Source: a virus. Taken from it: DNA of 64,000 nt. The notes below the pieces were generated by a model. That model made no database searches, was not told the origin of the DNA, and saw only the letters and a program-made list of their open reading frames with translations. Both the position numbers and the translations under genes were made by a program. Of the stretch, positions 26,234-62,578 are shown piece by piece. The stretch is from positions 36,570-100,569 of the IMG/VR virus record IMGVR_UViG_3300021378_000010. One strand, written 5' to 3'. The stretch's first letter is position 1, and every line of letters starts with the position of its first letter.

Positions 26234-26518
26234 TTAACGATTGTAAACATAGACGTCAGCAGTAGTAGCATCAGCAAGGCGAATAGCTTGGTGATTATAG
26301 TAAGTACCTGTTCCACCATTTGCACGGCAACGATACTTTACAGCAGCAGGGTTGCCTTTACCAAGCCGGCCTTGCAGCTTTACATATTGAGTAGTGCTAA
26401 ATGCAGAGTTGCCGAGCTTGACGACAGTGCGAAGACCGTCAACGGAAGCTTGATCTTCGGGGTGAACTTTTCCGTCAATCATACGAATTGTAAAACGATA
26501 AGCAGAAGTGCGAGTCAT
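26234..26518 (-). CDS. Hypothetical 94-residue basic protein
   Basis: Not recognised. Starts at ATG 26518 (MTRTSAYRFTIRM) with AAGGAACTACATC upstream. Basic and beta-rich (YVKLQGRLGKGNPAAVKYRC). Own promoter at 26552-26578. Confidence 0.7.
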   Translation of the reverse strand: MTRTSAYRFTIRMIDGKVHPEDQASVDGLRTVVKLGNSAFSTTQYVKLQGRLGKGNPAAVKYRCRANGGTGTYYNHQAIRLADATTADVYVYNR

Positions 26519-26551
26519 GATGTAGTTCCTTTTCATTTCTTATAATAAGAT

Positions 26552-26578
26552 ATTATATTGATTCGGAACAAATGTCAA
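26552..26578 (-). promoter_or_regulatory. GAATCA-type promoter (minus strand)
   Basis: TTGACA, 15-base spacer ending CCGAATCAA, TATAAT. The only clear minus-strand copy of the promoter family that dominates 36-60 kb. Confidence 0.7.
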
Positions 26579-26820
26579 CAGCTATTTTTAGATTTGTTTA
26601 TGATACTAGCTTGTCTCGCAGCCCATGCAGCTTCGAAGCCAACTTCATGTACGATAGCTTCGTGGTTGCCCCAAATTCTTTTGAAGTAGCCTTCGTATGT
26701 CTTCATGACATCAGCTTCACTCCAGCTTTCAGGTATCAGTTGACCCTTTACTATCCAATAGTAACGGTTTGCTTCTTTACGTTGAAATCTTGTCATATAG
26801 TTCTCAGTTCTTTTTGCCAT
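26575..26820 (-). CDS. Hypothetical 81-residue protein
   Basis: Not recognised; Trp/Tyr-rich (YYWIVKGQLIPESWSEADVM). A minus-strand TATAAATA (26839-26832) is only 12 bases upstream of ATG 26820, so translation might instead start at the internal ATG near 26796. Its 3' end touches the promoter at 26552-26578. Confidence 0.6.
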   Translation of the reverse strand: MAKRTENYMTRFQRKEANRYYWIVKGQLIPESWSEADVMKTYEGYFKRIWGNHEAIVHEVGFEAAWAARQASIINKSKNSC

Positions 26821-44070: not shown

Positions 44071-44288
44071 CAACGCAGGACAAAATAGTACTCATTCTTT
44101 CTTTAGGACTGATTCTATTACTTGTTGGCATAGTTGGTTTTGACTTTACTATAGCAATTCAAGAAGGTCGACCACCAGATGATAGTGTTATTGAATTGTT
44201 ACAAATGTCTATTACTGGAATTGTTGGTATAGTAGCTGGTTACCTTGCAGGTAAAAATAATAATGACGATGATGAAAATAATTGTTGA
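44067..44288 (+). CDS. Small membrane protein, holin-like topology
   Basis: 73 residues, ATGA overlap with the LEA-like gene. Two membrane segments, KIVLILSLGLILLLVGIVGF and MSITGIVGIVAGYLAG, then an acidic tail. Coupled to the previous gene. Its TGA stop is inside the TTGACA of the next promoter. Holin function is only a topology-based guess. Confidence 0.65.
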   Translation: MTTQDKIVLILSLGLILLLVGIVGFDFTIAIQEGRPPDDSVIELLQMSITGIVGIVAGYLAGKNNNDDDENNC

Positions 44289-44313
44289 CATTTGTAAGGA
44301 ATTGGATTATATT
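44285..44313 (+). promoter_or_regulatory. Promoter of the Y-like RNA / Ro60-like operon
   Basis: TTGACA (44285-44290), 17-base spacer, TATATT (44308-44313). First downstream element is Y-like RNA E1. Confidence 0.65.
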
Positions 44314-44331
44314 AATTATATAAAGAAAATT

Positions 44332-44398
44332 GGATGATTACAGCAAAAACTCACGCTAAAAAACTTTTGATGTGTCTTAGCGGACAAACATCATCCAG
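44332..44398 (+). ncRNA. Y-RNA-like element E1
   Basis: Closing helix GGATGAT/ATCATCC (7 bp), then TACAGCAAAAAC, an inner hairpin CGCTAA/TTAGCG and GACAAAC before the closing strand; AG follows. Same skeleton as E7 at 55629. No tRNA part. Confidence 0.6.
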
Positions 44399-44410
44399 AT
44401 AAAGAAAATA

Positions 44411-44487
44411 GGATCGTTACAGCATTTCCTAGCTCAGGTAGAGCATTTGACTTGTAATCAAACGAAAAGCCGAAAGGCACGATCCTG
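44411..44487 (+). ncRNA. Y-RNA-like element E2 carrying tRNA D and anticodon arms
   Basis: Closing helix GGATCGT/ACGATCC, TACAGCA, then a D arm (GCTC-AGGTA-GAGC), an anticodon arm TTTGA-CTTGTAA-TCAAA (Thr TGT type) and a GCC-GAAA-GGC hairpin; no T arm and no acceptor. TG follows. Confidence 0.6.
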
Positions 44488-44505
44488 AATATACTATGAA
44501 ACATT

Positions 44506-44587
44506 GGTTTGTTTCAGCAAAAACTCGGATAAAAATCAAACTTCATAACTTTGATCGAATGGGTTCAAATCCCACCATACAAACCAG
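44506..44587 (+). ncRNA. Y-RNA-like element E3 carrying tRNA anticodon and T arms
   Basis: Closing helix GGTTTGT/ACAAACC, TTCAGCAAAAAC, then an anticodon-type arm (ATCAAA...TTTGAT, loop with TTCATAA) and a T arm TGGG-TTCAAAT-CCCA. Ends 13 bases before the Ro60-like ATG and overlaps its ribosome-site region. Confidence 0.6.
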
Positions 44588-44600
44588 AAAGGAATACACT

Positions 44601-46028
44601 ATGTCTTTTAAAAATGCAGCACTAAATATGAATAACGAAGCGGTAGCTCGTACTGAAAATGGTATGAGAGCTCGTAAGACTTCTGCCTCTGCAGTTCTTG
44701 ATTTTTTCGGTAAAGCTGGTTCCGCTCGTGGAACCGATATTACAAAAGATTTTATGTCTGCACTTGTAGACAACCAGGACCTCGCTGTTCGGGCTCTTCT
44801 TTGGACTCGTGACATTCGTGGTGGTGCTGGTGAACGTTCTCAGTTCCGTAATTTGCTTGCAAAGCTAGAGGCTTCCGACCCAACTCTAGCTGGTCGTTTG
44901 ATGGCACGAGTTCCTGAACTTGGCCGTTGGGATGATCTATTCGCTTACACTGATCCAATCAACCGTCGTAAGGCTTTTGAAATGATCCGTGAAGCACTGA
45001 CTATGAAGAATGGTCTATGCGCTAAGTGGATGCCTCGCAAAGGTTCTGTAGCTGTAGAACTTACTAAGTTTCTTAATCTGACTCCAAAGCAGTATCGTAA
45101 GTTGCTGGTTGGTCTAACTCAGGTTGTTGAAACTCAGATGTGTGCAAAGGAATGGGAAGCAATCAACTTCTCTCACGTTCCTTCTGTAGCATCTGCCCGC
45201 TACCAGAAAGCATTTGGTCGTAACGTTGGTGAAGCATATGGAGAATATCTTCGTGAACTCCAGAAGGCACCAGAGGATCGTAAAGATCCTAAAGTTAAGA
45301 TCAACGCAGCTGCAGTATATCCATACGATGTTGTGAAGTCTGTTACAAAGGGTAATGCGGCTGTTGCTAACGAACAGTGGAAGGCTCTGCCTAACTACGT
45401 TGGTGATGCTCGTATCATGCCGATGGTTGACGTATCTGGTTCTATGGGTAGACTTCGTTACAGTAGCGCTGGAACTGTTCAACCAATCGACGTAGCAATC
45501 TCTCTGGGTCTGTATCTGTCTGAAAAGAACACTTCTGATTTCAAGGACATGTTCCTGACTTTCAGTGGCAAGCCAAAGCTTGAAGTTCTCAAAGGCACTC
45601 TGTCTCAGCGTGTCGCACAGCTTGAGAAAGCACATTGGGACATGAACACTAACCTTCACGCAGCATTCGAAGAAATCCTTCGTGTTGCTAAGAAGGGTAA
45701 GGTTGCTCAAGCAGATATGCCTGAGATGCTGCTCATCCTCTCGGATATGCAGTTCGACAGCTGCACTCGCTTCGATGACTCTGCACAAGAGATGATCAAG
45801 CGTAAGTATGCTGAAGCAGGTTATGAAGTTCCTAAGATCGTATTCTGGAACCTTCGTGTATCAGGTACAGGTAACACTCCTGTTCGTTTCGATGATAAGG
45901 GTGTCTGCCACGTATCTGGTTTCAGCCCAGCAATCATGAAGGCAATTCTGTCTGTTGAAGAACTGGAAGACTTCACGCCGTTCAACGTGATGGTTAAGAC
46001 TCTTATGAGCGATCGTTACGATTACTAA
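44601..46028 (+). CDS. TROVE/vWA (DUF2828-like) RNA-binding protein, Ro60-like
   Basis: 475 residues from ATG 44601 (AGAAAGG upstream); the longer frame would start inside E3. The helical TROVE-type part has LAVRALLWTRDIRGGAGERS and ARVPELGRWDDLFAYTDP; the C-terminal vWA domain has the MIDAS MPMVDVSGSMGRL near residue 275 and LLILSDMQFD. Ro60 proteins form a ring that binds Y RNAs and misfolded RNAs. Y-like RNAs lie directly before (E1-E3) and after (E4-E6) the gene, as with bacterial rsr loci. Confidence 0.85.
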   Translation: MSFKNAALNMNNEAVARTENGMRARKTSASAVLDFFGKAGSARGTDITKDFMSALVDNQDLAVRALLWTRDIRGGAGERSQFRNLLAKLEASDPTLAGRLMARVPELGRWDDLFAYTDPINRRKAFEMIREALTMKNGLCAKWMPRKGSVAVELTKFLNLTPKQYRKLLVGLTQVVETQMCAKEWEAINFSHVPSVASARYQKAFGRNVGEAYGEYLRELQKAPEDRKDPKVKINAAAVYPYDVVKSVTKGNAAVANEQWKALPNYVGDARIMPMVDVSGSMGRLRYSSAGTVQPIDVAISLGLYLSEKNTSDFKDMFLTFSGKPKLEVLKGTLSQRVAQLEKAHWDMNTNLHAAFEEILRVAKKGKVAQADMPEMLLILSDMQFDSCTRFDDSAQEMIKRKYAEAGYEVPKIVFWNLRVSGTGNTPVRFDDKGVCHVSGFSPAIMKAILSVEELEDFTPFNVMVKTLMSDRYDY

Positions 46029-46033
46029 GAGTT

Positions 46034-46047
46034 AGGCCTTCGGGCCT
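46034..46047 (+). terminator. Hairpin after the Ro60-like gene
   Basis: AGGCC-TTCG-GGCCT tetraloop hairpin without a T run; may protect the mRNA 3' end or separate it from E4. Confidence 0.45.
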
Positions 46048-46062
46048 AGCCTCCAATCTTTG

Positions 46063-46196
46063 GATCATTTCAGCAACAAAACAGCTATGCATTGAAAGCA
46101 CGAGTTTGCAGGTTCGAGTCCTGCCTCCCCTACCATCTACAATTGAAGGGGAGTGGGCAAATGGTAAAGCCGCGTAAAAGCAAAAAGTTGATCCAG
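46063..46196 (+). ncRNA. Y-RNA-like element E4 with a circularly permuted tRNA-like module
   Basis: Closing helix GGATCA/TGATCC, TTTCAGCAACAAAA, then in order: a TGC-ATTGAAA-GCA hairpin, T arm GCAGG-TTCGAGT-CCTGC, acceptor 3' strand CTCCCCT (46125-46131), ACCA, 11-base loop, acceptor 5' strand AGGGGAG (46147-46153), and D arm GGC...GCC. The acceptor pairs perfectly but its 3' strand precedes its 5' strand. Confidence 0.65.
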
Positions 46197-46218
46197 TTAA
46201 ACATTCAGGAGTTATATC

Positions 46219-46650
46219 ATGTCAGAACTACGTATTGAATCTTTCAAAAATGAATTTGACCAAACGATTAATCCCGGTGACGAAGTAGTATATGTAGCTA
46301 CTGGTTATTCCCATCAGGTAAGCGTAAATCGCGGCCGCTATCAGGGCTTGTGGTATAGCATTGTAACACGTACTCGTGAAGTAAAAGATGCCGACGGTAA
46401 CGTTGTAATGGAAGAACGCCACGGCCGACAGTATCCTAAGCGAGAATATTACACTGAGATGGCTCCTACGGCAGTTCGTCTTGATAATGTTCCAAAGGGG
46501 CATAAATACGTAGAAGTTTGGAACAAAGAAAAGCAACGCAAAGTCTGGACTAAAACAGATGAAATGCGTTATGGTACTACCACTCTTCCACGTAAACGAG
46601 TTTATAAGATTGGTACCTCGATGTTAGATTTCGCAGGTAACACTCTTTAA
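46219..46650 (+). CDS. Hypothetical protein between Y-like RNAs
   Basis: 143 residues, ATG 46219 after CAGGAGTTATATC. Beta-rich and basic, with INPGDEVVYVATGYSHQVSV resembling the start of an SH3/KOW-type barrel. Not recognised. Its place between E4 and E5 makes an RNA-binding role worth testing. Confidence 0.65.
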   Translation: MSELRIESFKNEFDQTINPGDEVVYVATGYSHQVSVNRGRYQGLWYSIVTRTREVKDADGNVVMEERHGRQYPKREYYTEMAPTAVRLDNVPKGHKYVEVWNKEKQRKVWTKTDEMRYGTTTLPRKRVYKIGTSMLDFAGNTL

Positions 46651-46660
46651 TAAGAATTTA

Positions 46661-46757
46661 GGTTAGTTTCAGCAAACAAAAAATAGTTGGTTCGACTCCA
46701 ACACCACGCTCCATAATATCGCGTAGTGAGCCCATGGTGGGCAAACATGCTAACCTG
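46661..46757 (+). ncRNA. Y-RNA-like element E5 with a permuted tRNA-like module
   Basis: Closing helix GGTTAGT/GCTAACC, TTCAGCAAACAAAA, T arm GTTGG-TTCGACT-CCAAC, acceptor 3' strand ACCACGC, T, CCA (46711-46713), 7-base loop, acceptor 5' strand GCGTAGT (46721-46727, one A-C mismatch), D arm GCCC/GGGC. No anticodon arm: the closing helix takes its place. Confidence 0.65.
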
Positions 46758-46766
46758 TAAAAATTT

Positions 46767-46866
46767 GGATGGTTTCAGCCAAAAATTGTATAGCTCATCG
46801 GTAGAGCAATTGCCTTCCAAGCAATGGGTTGCGGGTTCGATCCCCGCTACAAAAAACACCATCCAG
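46767..46866 (+). ncRNA. Y-RNA-like element E6 enclosing a tRNA-Gly
   Basis: Closing helix GGATGGT/ACCATCC, TTCAGCCAAAAA, a complete tRNA core (46786-46852), AAAAAC, then the closing strand and AG. Confidence 0.65.
46786..46852 (+). tRNA. tRNA-Gly(TCC)-like core inside E6
   Basis: D arm, anticodon loop CTTCCAA and T arm GCGGG-TTCGATC-CCCGC are intact, but the acceptor is only 5 bp (TTGTA/TACAA) and there is no discriminator-CCA. Not expected to be charged unless rebuilt. Confidence 0.6.
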
Positions 46867-55622: not shown

Positions 55623-55628
55623 AAAATA

Positions 55629-55689
55629 GGATCGGTTCAGCAAACAAAAACGCTAATTATTATAGTCTTAGCGGACAAAAACGATCCTG
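55629..55689 (+). ncRNA. Y-RNA-like element E7
   Basis: Closing helix GGATCG/CGATCC, GTTCAGCAAACAAAAA, inner hairpin CGCTAA/TTAGCG, GACAAAAA; TG follows. Same skeleton as E1, 11 kb away and inside the tRNA array. Confidence 0.6.
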
Positions 55690-55868: not shown

Positions 55869-55968
55869 ATAGACTGGATATAATCACCCCTTGTGAGGGT
55901 GACCCAAGGACTCAGTAACGAGATACAGCGAAGGGTTGTTGGTCAAGGTTGCAAACAACCCAGTCTAT
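55869..55968 (+). ncRNA. Terminal-helix RNA, 9-bp stem
   Basis: ATAGACTGG (55869-55877) with CCAGTCTAT (55960-55968); inner TCACCC/GGGTGA and GGGTTGTT/AACAACCC hairpins. Part of a 300-base stretch without protein genes. Confidence 0.45.
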
Positions 55969-56120
55969 ACTTATTCACTGTGTAAGAGGTCGACATCTTG
56001 CATAGAGAGAACACTGCATACCCCGTGGAACCTCGGGGTACCGACGATGACAGTTGTTGTGCAGGGGTAAAAGTCCCAACTGGGGGTTCTGGAAATTTTT
56101 ATAGGCGACGGCAATCGCCT
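55969..56120 (+). other. Structured spacer without recognised gene
   Basis: Hairpins ACCCCG/CGGGGT (near 56018-56037) and GGCGA/TCGCC (near 56104-56119). No ORF of note. Confidence 0.4.
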
Positions 56121-56253
56121 TGACTAAAGAACTACAGTAGCAGTCTTTGCCGAGAAAGCGAACTAGTAGACTGTATCGTCTAATGGATAGGACGCCCTGC
56201 TTTACAGTGGGGAGATATGGGTTCGATACCTGTTGCAGTTTTGTCTTTAGTCA
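56121..56253 (+). ncRNA. Terminal-helix RNA enclosing a tRNA-like domain
   Basis: TGACTAAAGA (56121-56130) pairs perfectly with TCTTTAGTCA (56244-56253). Inside, 56169-56241 folds as a tRNA: acceptor GACTGTA/TGCAGTT, D arm, T arm ATGGG-TTCGATA-CCTGT. The anticodon arm is irregular (CCCTG, loop CTTTACAG of 8, TGGGG) and no CCA is encoded. Confidence 0.5.
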
Positions 56254-56337: not shown

Positions 56338-56341
56338 ATAG

Positions 56342-56431
56342 CCAAGGTCCTAGACGTTGTGAAACTACAGGCTTTGTATGTAGTGAGAAAGCTAGGAGAC
56401 CTGCCAGTAGGGAGAAACTGGCACTTATTTT
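56342..56431 (+). other. Structured spacer
   Basis: AGGTCCTAG/CTAGGAGACCT, ACTACA/TGTAGT and TGCCAGT/ACTGGCA stems between tRNA-Trp and tRNA-Ser. Confidence 0.4.
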
Positions 56432-56524
56432 GGAGAGTGATCTACAGAGGTCTGTAGCCCGGTCTTGAAAACCGGTGGAGCGGCTAGTACCCGCTTGGGG
56501 ATCGTTACCACCCGCTCTCTGCCA
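56432..56524 (+). tRNA. tRNA-Ser(TGA) with A54/T58 T-loop
   Basis: Acceptor GGAGAGT/GCTCTCT, G73, anticodon loop CTTGAAA, variable arm GCGG/CCGC, T-loop ATCGTTA. The D arm is a tight CTACAG-AGGT-CTGTAG hairpin. CCA encoded. Confidence 0.82.
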
Positions 56525-56530
56525 ATATTG

Positions 56531-56600
56531 TAGAAGTTGCCCACTGATCATATGCTGAGAGTTTTCGACCTGACTCGTTGAAGCGATTATGCCACTTCTA
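56531..56600 (+). ncRNA. Terminal-helix RNA, 7-bp stem
   Basis: TAGAAGT (56531-56537) with ACTTCTA (56594-56600); tRNA-sized, with a GAGT/ACTC inner stem. Confidence 0.4.
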
Positions 56601-56635
56601 CCTACTAGAGGAATAGGTCCCTTCTAGATAGTTTC

Positions 56636-56710
56636 GGGCTGCGTCTATGGGGTAGCGGCTGATCCTTGCAAGATCGGCGTCACGGGGTTCGATTCCCCGG
56701 CGGTCCACCA
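56636..56710 (+). tRNA. tRNA-Ala(TGC)
   Basis: Acceptor GGGCTGC/GCGGTCC, anticodon loop CTTGCAA, T-loop TTCGATT, CCA encoded. Confidence 0.9.
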
Positions 56711-56716
56711 AAATTT

Positions 56717-56795
56717 ACTTGTCCAAGACCGCAAGGATTGGATCGCCTGAGCCGTAAGGTAATCCTTGGAACGATAACATGGCGTCCAAGCAAGT
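56717..56795 (+). ncRNA. Structured RNA between tRNA-Ala and tRNA-Gly
   Basis: Outer ACTTG/CAAGT and inner 8-bp CAAGGATT/AATCCTTG. Confidence 0.4.
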
Positions 56796-56806
56796 GATAT
56801 AGTATT

Positions 56807-56882
56807 GCGGATGTAGCTCAATCGGTAGAGCGTCTGCTTGCCAAGCAGAAGGTAGTGGGATCGTAACCCATCATCCGCTCCA
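56807..56882 (+). tRNA. tRNA-Gly(GCC) with A54/T58 T-loop
   Basis: Acceptor GCGGATG/CATCCGC perfect, U73, anticodon loop TTGCCAA, T stem GTGGG/CCCAT with loop ATCGTAA. CCA encoded. Confidence 0.9.
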
Positions 56883-56890
56883 AATTTTAT

Positions 56891-57022
56891 GACCGAAAGT
56901 CACTGTGCTGGTCTTGTCACCTTCATACACTTCGGTCTTCTAAACTGGTACCTATCGTTGTCAAATTATTAGGAAGGACATAGGGTGGATAGGTTAAAAG
57001 AATGCATGTTTGACTGCCAGTT
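56891..57022 (+). ncRNA. Two structured RNAs between tRNA-Gly and tRNA-Asp
   Basis: GACCGAA (56891-56897) with TTCGGTC (56931-56937); AACTGG (56943-56948) with CCAGTT (57017-57022) enclosing ACCTATC/GATAGGT. Confidence 0.4.
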
Positions 57023-57032
57023 AAATCAAAAT

Positions 57033-61820: not shown

Positions 61821-61858
61821 CATTTTTGTCACATATTTACTAAATAGTAATTTAGCAG

Positions 61859-61887
61859 TTGACATTTACTATAAAATGTATTATATA
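61859..61887 (+). promoter_or_regulatory. tmRNA promoter
   Basis: TTGACA (61859-61864), 17 bases, TATATA (61882-61887). A second TTGACA lies at 61817-61822. Confidence 0.6.
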
Positions 61888-61889
61888 TA

Positions 61890-62215
61890 ACTTGTAGGCG
61901 TTGAAGCAACGTGGACACATTCTGGACTCGGGGGCGGTACCCGACGACTCCACCATAAACAGTCGCGATCTTCTGATCCTTAAAGTGATGATGAGTCTGA
62001 CCACAGAGCCAAGGCAGTGATAAGCTAGTCATGGGTGACTGTTTTTGCTGGGGTCGAAATAGGATCGACAGGTGTGAAGATGAAGTGGAGTTTACCGGAT
62101 GACTGCGTTATTGGTCAATTAAACTAAATGCAAATGAAAATTTCGCACCTAAGGCTTTTGCTCTAGCAGCATAAGTACTGTGGGTTGGCAACTTACCTAG
62201 AAACAGAAAAGTTGC
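61890..62215 (+). ncRNA. ssrA: Circularly permuted two-piece tmRNA
   Basis: The acceptor piece comes first and ends CGACTCC-A-CCA (61945-61955). The intervening segment (61956-62049) is bounded by AAACAGTC/GACTGTTT. The coding piece starts GGGGTCG (62050-62056), which pairs with CGACTCC over 7 bp including the G3-U70 wobble read by alanyl-tRNA synthetase, followed by AAATAGGATCGACAGG. The tag frame 62130-62174 reads ANENFAPKAFALAA and stop. This order is the alphaproteobacterial type. The outer ends are approximate. Confidence 0.88.
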
Positions 62216-62248
62216 ACTTTTCATGAAAACAAAACAAGGAATACAAAT

Positions 62249-62578
62249 ATGACAAATACTATGATGGCGGCCGTTGCTGCACTTACTTTTTCTACTGCAG
62301 CTGCAAACGCTGGTGATCTTGCTTATCTTGGTGGTGTAGAATACGCTGTAGAAGCAGAAGTTTTTGAAATGACTGCAGGTGTAGAATACAATGCCGGTGG
62401 CTTTACTCTAACACCCGCACTTACACTTAATGACGCAACTGGCGATTTTGAATTCGCAACAGCTGAACTTACAGTTGGTTACGCAGTTACGACCGCCATG
62501 GACGTATACGCAACTATTGATACTGATGACAGTTTTAATCGTACTGAAACCACACTTGGTGTTGCTTTTCGCTTCTAA
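62249..62578 (+). CDS. Small outer-membrane beta-barrel-like protein
   Basis: 109 residues. Signal peptide (ALTFSTAAANAGDLAY, cleavage near ANA), then alternating beta strands YAVEAEVFEMTAGVEY, FTLTPALTLNDATGDFEFAT and a terminal TTLGVAFRF ending in Phe, the outer membrane insertion signature. About six strands, so short for a full barrel. Follows the tmRNA. Confidence 0.7.
   Translation: MTNTMMAAVAALTFSTAAANAGDLAYLGGVEYAVEAEVFEMTAGVEYNAGGFTLTPALTLNDATGDFEFATAELTVGYAVTTAMDVYATIDTDDSFNRTETTLGVAFRF

What the first reader, a model, noticed from the sequence alone, without database searches (positions are those of the whole stretch)
44332..46866. Phage Ro60-type RNP locus: a TROVE/vWA protein flanked by six Y-RNA-like RNAs
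Six elements (E1-E3 before, E4-E6 after the TROVE gene) share a layout: a 6-7 bp closing helix starting GGAT or GGTT, then T(T/A)CAGC(A/C) and an A-rich strand, a variable insert, an A-rich strand, the closing strand and AG or TG. A seventh copy (E7) lies at 55629. The closing helices differ in sequence but keep pairing (GGATGAT/ATCATCC, GGATCGT/ACGATCC, GGTTTGT/ACAAACC, GGATGGT/ACCATCC), so they covary. Bacterial Ro60 orthologues bind Y RNAs encoded next to them, and the YrlA class contains a tRNA mimic. Here the inserts are tRNA pieces of different kinds. I know of no description of such a multi-RNA phage set.
Basis: partly seen in the sequence, partly recalled or inferred. Interest (0 to 1): 0.93.

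Follow-up and report, generated by a model that had tools for sequence, protein, structure and literature searches.

The report
Phage Ro60-like protein with tRNA-mimic RNAs
This phage carries a ring-type RNA-binding protein related to human Ro60, plus seven small RNAs that share one docking handle but hold up different pieces of a transfer RNA; the partnership is of a known kind, but the size, variety and spread of the RNA set across phages look new.

Summary
Seven elements (E1-E7) share a handle: a 7-8 bp helix, 3 nt, CAGCA, an insert, an A-rich strand, the closing strand and G. With both halves chosen by sequence alone, the variable helix bases pair in 99 of 117 related elements (shuffled mean 11.6). 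A motif-first scan of viral contigs finds the Ro-like gene beside 10 of 25 stem-forming sites and 0 of 97 others.

The protein is Pfam DUF2828/DUF7788, not Pfam TROVE, but its predicted fold's best solved matches are TROVE and Ro60 proteins. 66 of 73 relatives have an element within 1 kb upstream; Felix O1, Listeria, Enterococcus, Staphylococcus, Campylobacter, Bacillus and Mycobacterium phages have them too.

E4 and E5 are circularly permuted tRNA bodies, the known YrlA design. E6 is a tRNA body in normal order, E2 and E3 are partial tRNAs, and E1/E7 hold a covarying pseudoknot.

New here: the pan-phage handle, sets of up to ten RNAs, and modules showing the anticodon arm rather than the acceptor end. 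Best mechanism: Ro-bound adaptor RNAs presenting tRNA surfaces, perhaps against host tRNA-cleaving defences (purpose unproven).

The parts
44285..44313 (+). Promoter-like site TTGACA-17-TATATT, 18 nt before E1
   Evidence: 11 of 12 consensus matches, best site in the region, though the total number of sites is not above shuffles
44331..44397 (+). E1: handle + H-type pseudoknot module (CGCTAA/TTAGCG with TGTC/GACA)
   Evidence: (z -3.3)
44410..44486 (+). E2: handle + D arm and anticodon arm (loop CTTGTAA), then a GCC/GGC hairpin in place of the T arm
44505..44586 (+). E3: handle + anticodon arm (CAT) and T arm, no D arm
44601..46028 (+). Ro60-like ring/vWA protein, 475 aa; MIDAS DVSGSM at 277-282 invariant or nearly so in 40 relatives
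   Evidence: Pfam DUF7788 2.7e-49, DUF2828 2.3e-17; phrog_850 'RNA-binding protein' 9.7e-143; alignment; best PDB folds TROVE 9kop, Rsr 2nvo, Ro60 9nfa
46061..46195 (+). E4: handle + circularly permuted tRNA (T arm, acceptor 3' strand with ACCA, loop, acceptor 5' strand, D arm), YrlA-like order
46660..46756 (+). E5: handle + permuted tRNA (T arm, acceptor with TCCA, loop, acceptor, D-like arm)
46766..46865 (+). E6: handle + tRNA-Gly(UCC)-like body in normal order, tethered by its shortened acceptor stem, no CCA end
   Evidence: Rfam tRNA 57 bits, ARAGORN, fold, 77% identical to the phage's tRNA-Gly(TCC) over 57 nt
55628..55688 (+). E7: handle + the same pseudoknot module as E1, lying between tRNA-Met and tRNA-Leu genes

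Best explanation
The locus encodes a phage Ro ribonucleoprotein. SHOWN by sequence: a Ro60-like ring/vWA protein, and a family of small RNAs with one covarying handle and interchangeable inserts, encoded beside it in most relatives. INFERRED: the handle (7-bp helix, 3-nt bulge, CAGCA / A-rich strand) is the binding site on the protein's ring, so the RNAs act as adaptors. INFERRED: the insert is a presented surface. Permuted modules (E4, E5) are tethered where the anticodon stem would be and show the acceptor/T/D side; normal-order modules (E6, E3, E2) are tethered at the acceptor end and show the anticodon arm; E1/E7 show a pseudoknot. Together the set would let one protein capture several classes of tRNA-binding enzymes. 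Most likely purpose (about 35% on its own): protecting translation in the infected cell, by occupying or recruiting host tRNA-cleaving or tRNA-handling enzymes.
For: Fold match to TROVE/Rsr/Ro60; handle covariation; 66/73 loci with an element within 1 kb upstream of the gene; motif-first scan: 10/25 stem-forming sites near the gene, all on the same strand, 0/97 without stem; elements in Felix O1, Listeria LP-048, Enterococcus Bill, Staphylococcus 6ec, Mycobacterium Silverleaf, Bacillus PJN02, Campylobacter F361 phages and, away from the gene, in nt-1 and GAP32; Rfam YrlA covers permuted phage elements end to end (E 1.7e-8); module census; pseudoknot 13 versus 3.3 expected. YrlA was proposed as a competitive inhibitor of an anticodon nuclease (PMC7790460), and phage tRNAs resist such nucleases (PMC11455837).
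Against: No transcript, binding or phenotype data for this phage. No RtcB or Pfam PF09414 RNA ligase in the 100.6-kb record, which may be incomplete. In Salmonella YrlA was not cut by the DNA-damage-induced tRNA nuclease. The Rfam YrlA consensus has AUGC, not CAGC, after its handle helix, so the two handles are not the same sequence. Window E4 and E5 did not reach YrlA at E<1. Sub-threshold YrlA hits also occur in control genomes.
Confidence: 0.62

Rival explanations
1. Phage RYPER: the RNAs tether the Ro-like ring to host PNPase (or another nuclease) so that structured host RNA, such as rRNA and tRNA, is degraded and recycled. Insert variety only tunes the fit.
For: Known mechanism of Deinococcus Rsr/Y RNA/PNPase (PMC8394870; proposed for phage CKA15 in PMC12282133).
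Against: Does not explain why one phage keeps normal-order tRNA bodies, anticodon arms, permuted bodies and pseudoknots together.
Confidence: 0.3
2. Quality control of the phage's own tRNAs: the ring captures misfolded or cut tRNAs, and the Y-like RNAs act as gates or maturation standards carrying the modification-enzyme sites.
For: Elements lie inside tRNA islands (E7; GAP32); the window has 27 ARAGORN tRNA calls, one of them E6 itself; YrlA is a DusA/TruB substrate.
Against: The 6ec stretch has one annotated tRNA yet three elements, so a large tRNA set is not required.
Confidence: 0.25
3. tRNA debris: decaying or rearranged tRNA genes in a tRNA-rich phage, with chance inverted repeats.
For: Inserts resemble tRNA parts; many tRNAs nearby.
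Against: One covarying handle with all kinds of insert, about half of them without any tRNA feature.
Confidence: 0.02
4. Cis-acting leader structures that regulate the Ro-like gene rather than free RNAs.
For: Most elements lie within 500 nt upstream of the gene (119 upstream within 500 nt, 29 downstream within 500 nt).
Against: E4-E7 lie downstream; GAP32's ten lie about 200 kb away in a tRNA island; several copies per phage.
Confidence: 0.05

Closest known systems
YrlA bacterial Y RNA (Rfam RF02553; Salmonella YrlA)
   Same: Order of modules in E4/E5: handle, T arm, capped acceptor, D arm. Enterococcus and Mycobacterium phage elements match the model end to end.
   Different: Handle sequence differs (CAGCA versus AUGC); all phage hits score below the gathering threshold; E1, E2, E3, E6, E7 do not have this order.
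Ro60 / Rsr (TROVE) proteins
   Same: Overall fold with helical-repeat part and C-terminal vWA with MIDAS; best solved matches 9kop, 2nvo, 9nfa; RNAs encoded beside the gene.
   Different: No Pfam TROVE match in the record; 13-15% identity; belongs to DUF2828/DUF7788, phrog_850.
Listeria phage CKA15 Rsr-like CKA15_055 and its putative Y RNAs (PMC12282133)
   Same: Homologous gene with three handle elements directly upstream; authors suggest Y RNAs.
   Different: The one highly transcribed region for which I found coordinates there (26,236-26,727) is a ROOL RNA by Rfam (E 2.5e-18), not a Y RNA; module diversity not described.
Phage tRNAs that resist anticodon nucleases (T5 tRNA-Lys versus PARIS, PMC11455837)
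   Same: tRNA-derived phage RNAs acting against tRNA-cleaving defence: possible shared purpose.
   Different: Those are working tRNAs; these lack a free CCA end and are locked in a handle.

Membership tests
Ro60/TROVE protein | Ro60-like fold: helical repeats plus vWA domain | tested here: met
   AF2 model pLDDT 77; top PDB matches 9kop, 2nvo, 9nfa, E 3e-10 to 1e-7, TM about 0.5
Ro60/TROVE protein | Match to Pfam TROVE PF05731 | tested here: not met
   No match in the record; DUF2828/DUF7788 instead
Ro60/TROVE protein | Binds Y RNA | not testable with these tools
   Needs pull-down or CLIP
Bacterial Y RNA (general) | 5' and 3' ends pair in a conserved Ro-binding stem | tested here: met
   that the stem binds the protein is inferred
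Bacterial Y RNA (general) | Encoded near the Ro gene | tested here: met
   66/73 loci, motif-first test
YrlA (RF02553) | Permuted tRNA domain: T arm, capped acceptor, D arm | tested here: met
   For E4 and E5 by fold; for relatives by Rfam
YrlA (RF02553) | Score above the Rfam gathering threshold of 69 bits | tested here: not met
   Best 46 bits among the phages searched; E4/E5 no hit at E<1. Not filed as YrlA members
tRNA gene (E6) | Full 7-bp acceptor and free CCA end | tested here: not met
   Sequence: about 5-bp acceptor, then straight into the handle

The most novel reading that the evidence does not exclude
Large phages carry an expandable kit of Ro-bound adaptor RNAs in which every face of tRNA (acceptor/T/D side, anticodon arm, parts) is displayed on one handle, used as counter-defence against host enzymes that cut or modify tRNA; some permuted modules that keep CCA might be opened by RNase P into charged, Ro-tethered tRNA-like ends.
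Probability: 0.25. Interest if true: 0.88.

Novelty: new variant of a known kind. Interest (0 to 1): 0.66.

Why it matters
It gives a simple signature (7-bp helix + 3 nt + CAGCA, partner strand + G) that finds Ro-associated RNAs in phages of many hosts, including laboratory phages, where the neighbouring gene is annotated only as hypothetical or RNA-binding. It links the uncharacterised DUF2828/DUF7788 family to Ro60. It also makes a long-open question, what bacterial-type Ro60 and its tRNA-mimicking RNAs are for, testable in fast phage genetics, with modules that can be removed one by one.

Tried and rejected
Rfam on the window at gathering and lax thresholds found only tRNA/tmRNA, no Y RNA family. 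Sequence and profile search of the PDB missed the Ro60 link, a 32-residue TROVE match at E 1.7 aside; only the fold comparison showed it. NCBIfam: none. Sub-threshold YrlA hits alone were not trusted, because control genomes ring too. I first took the highly expressed CKA15 region 26,236-26,727 as Y RNA support; Rfam shows it is ROOL, so expression of the CKA15 elements is not established here. First readings of nt-1, Aeh1 and GAP32 as lacking elements were wrong for nt-1 and GAP32 (found in trans); Aeh1 was only partly searched and remains without. The tRNA-like inserts are not recent copies of the phage's own tRNAs (best full body 77%). The tRNA-debris explanation was rejected. RtcB and RNA_ligase (PF09414) not found in the record. 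The key paper (Chen 2014) and the 2018 review could not be read.

Full report
OBSERVATION. With the outer pair added they are E1 44331-44397, E2 44410-44486, E3 44505-44586, E4 46061-46195, E5 46660-46756, E6 46766-46865 and E7 55628-55688. The gene is 44601-46028 (475 aa). A TTGACA-17-TATATT site ends 18 nt before E1.

CHANCE. In 80 related viral loci fetched by the protein, CAGC sites preceded at 3 nt by a 7-bp helix with a perfect partner are 204/2523 on the sense strand, 55/3114 antisense, and about 1-2% for other tetramers. When the 5' half (GG[AT]T..T[AT]CAGCA) and the 3' half (A[AT]CCNG) are each chosen by sequence alone, the two free helix positions are complementary in 99 of 117 cases (shuffled mean 11.6, maximum 24 of 2000) and all seven pairs form in 96 (shuffled 4.5), with 14 different dinucleotides. 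On a 47-row alignment drawn from that set, 92.4% of cells pair versus 69.7% shuffled, and 26-46% when slid.

CO-OCCURRENCE. 66 of 73 loci with at least 1 kb of upstream DNA have an element within 1 kb upstream of the gene. A scan of viral contigs for the RNA motif alone gave 122 sites. Of the 25 with a helix partner, 10 have the Ro-like gene in the stretch held, all on the same strand; of the 97 without, none (Fisher about 2e-8, my arithmetic). The homologous gene is in 682 named phage records. Elements flank it in Felix O1, Listeria LP-048, Staphylococcus 6ec, Mycobacterium Silverleaf (annotated 'Ro-like RNA binding protein'), Bacillus PJN02, Enterococcus Bill, Campylobacter F361, Synechococcus BUCT-ZZ01 and Cronobacter S13 phages. 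In Vibrio phage nt-1 three elements lie 7-10 kb upstream of the gene, and in GAP32 about ten lie roughly 200 kb away within a tRNA island, so the RNAs need not be in cis.

PROTEIN. Pfam DUF7788 and DUF2828, phrog_850 'RNA-binding protein', no Pfam TROVE. The vWA metal site DVSGSM is invariant or nearly so in 40 relatives. The AlphaFold2 model (mean pLDDT 77) has as its only PDB matches below E 0.001 the TROVE protein 9kop, Deinococcus Rsr 2nvo and the Ro60 of 9nfa. So it works like Ro60 by fold; formal Pfam membership is not met. T4-type DNA polymerase and baseplate genes indicate a T4-like myovirus (inference from family names).

MODULES. Folding gives E4 a T arm, a 7-bp acceptor and a capped loop, and E6 a normal-order cloverleaf joined to the handle through its acceptor end. 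Of 292 unique elements, 30 are clearly permuted and 16 more permuted-like; 12 have D arm, anticodon arm and T arm in normal order; 11 have anticodon plus T arm; 32 have an anticodon-arm-like hairpin only (loops CTTGTAA and CTTTTAA most often); the rest are short or long non-tRNA inserts. These are regex counts and approximate, and a few chance elements are included. The two tRNA orders point in opposite directions: permuted bodies hang from the anticodon stem and show the acceptor/T/D side; normal-order bodies hang from the acceptor and show the anticodon. E1/E7 belong to a pseudoknot class (CGCTAA/TTAGCG inside TGTC/GACA) whose stems covary: GACTA/TAGTC, GAACA/TGTTC, ACCAA/TTGGT; GTC/GAC to GAC/GTC, GCC/GGC or TCC/GGA (hand-aligned). 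13 of 137 short elements fit versus 3.3 expected, maximum 8.

KNOWN. Rfam YrlA matches permuted elements of Enterococcus phage Bill end to end (E 1.7e-8 and 6e-6) and Mycobacterium phage Silverleaf (E 2.8e-5), below the gathering score. YrlA has D, T and acceptor arms, is a DusA/TruB substrate, and is described as tethering Rsr to PNPase (PMC8394870). Chen et al. 2014 reported such RNAs in bacteria and phages; this rests on my memory and on PMC12282133, which cites mycobacteriophages. PMC12282133 also found the Rsr-like protein in purified CKA15 particles (20 peptides; authors caution that not all such proteins need be genuine particle parts) and suggested Y RNAs for highly transcribed regions. 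The one region for which I found coordinates is a ROOL RNA; three handle elements lie just upstream of the gene.

MECHANISM. Shown: covarying handle, interchangeable modules, genetic linkage to a Ro60-like protein. Inferred: handle binds ring; module binds client. Purpose is open between counter-defence or tRNA protection, RYPER-type decay, and tRNA quality control.

VERDICT. Real, and largely as read. New variant of a known kind: a multi-module, pan-phage Ro RNP. To my knowledge, normal-order tRNA bodies, bare anticodon arms and pseudoknots on one Ro handle are undescribed, but I could not read the main prior paper.

Noticed in passing
L218:2374-2925 (Listeria phage cka15 OR088597): The region reported without identity as a top-transcribed non-coding region of CKA15 (PMC12282133) matches Rfam ROOL RNA, E 2.5e-18.
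   Followed up: partly
window 44331-44397 and 55628-55688: E1 and E7 share a covarying H-type pseudoknot module found in several other phages; client unknown.
   Followed up: partly
window 46061-46195, 46660-46756; L209, L076, L081: 11 of 46 permuted modules keep discriminator+CCA inside the capping loop, hinting at origin from tRNA genes or RNase P opening.
   Followed up: partly
L232 (Cronobacter phage GAP32, about 306-312 kb): About ten handle elements interleaved with tRNA genes, roughly 200 kb from the Ro-like gene.
   Followed up: partly
window 55870-56160 and 56340-57030: Structured-looking non-coding stretches between tRNAs (for example TAGACTGG...CCAGTCTA), without Rfam match apart from a borderline tRNA-Sec hit at 56431-56521 (47.1 bits, threshold 47).
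   Followed up: no
window 61855-62265: Alphaproteobacteria-type (permuted two-piece) tmRNA in the phage, tag ANENFAPKAFALAA.
   Followed up: no
Pfam DUF2828/DUF7788: Papers and the Aeh1 annotation place relatives of this family in plants; the Ro60-like fold here suggests those may be Ro60-like too.
   Followed up: no
L042:2777-2936, L052:7365-7518, L054:7537-7718 and similar: A class of long (150-180 nt) inserts on the same handle, downstream of the gene, with no tRNA or Rfam identity assigned here.
   Followed up: no
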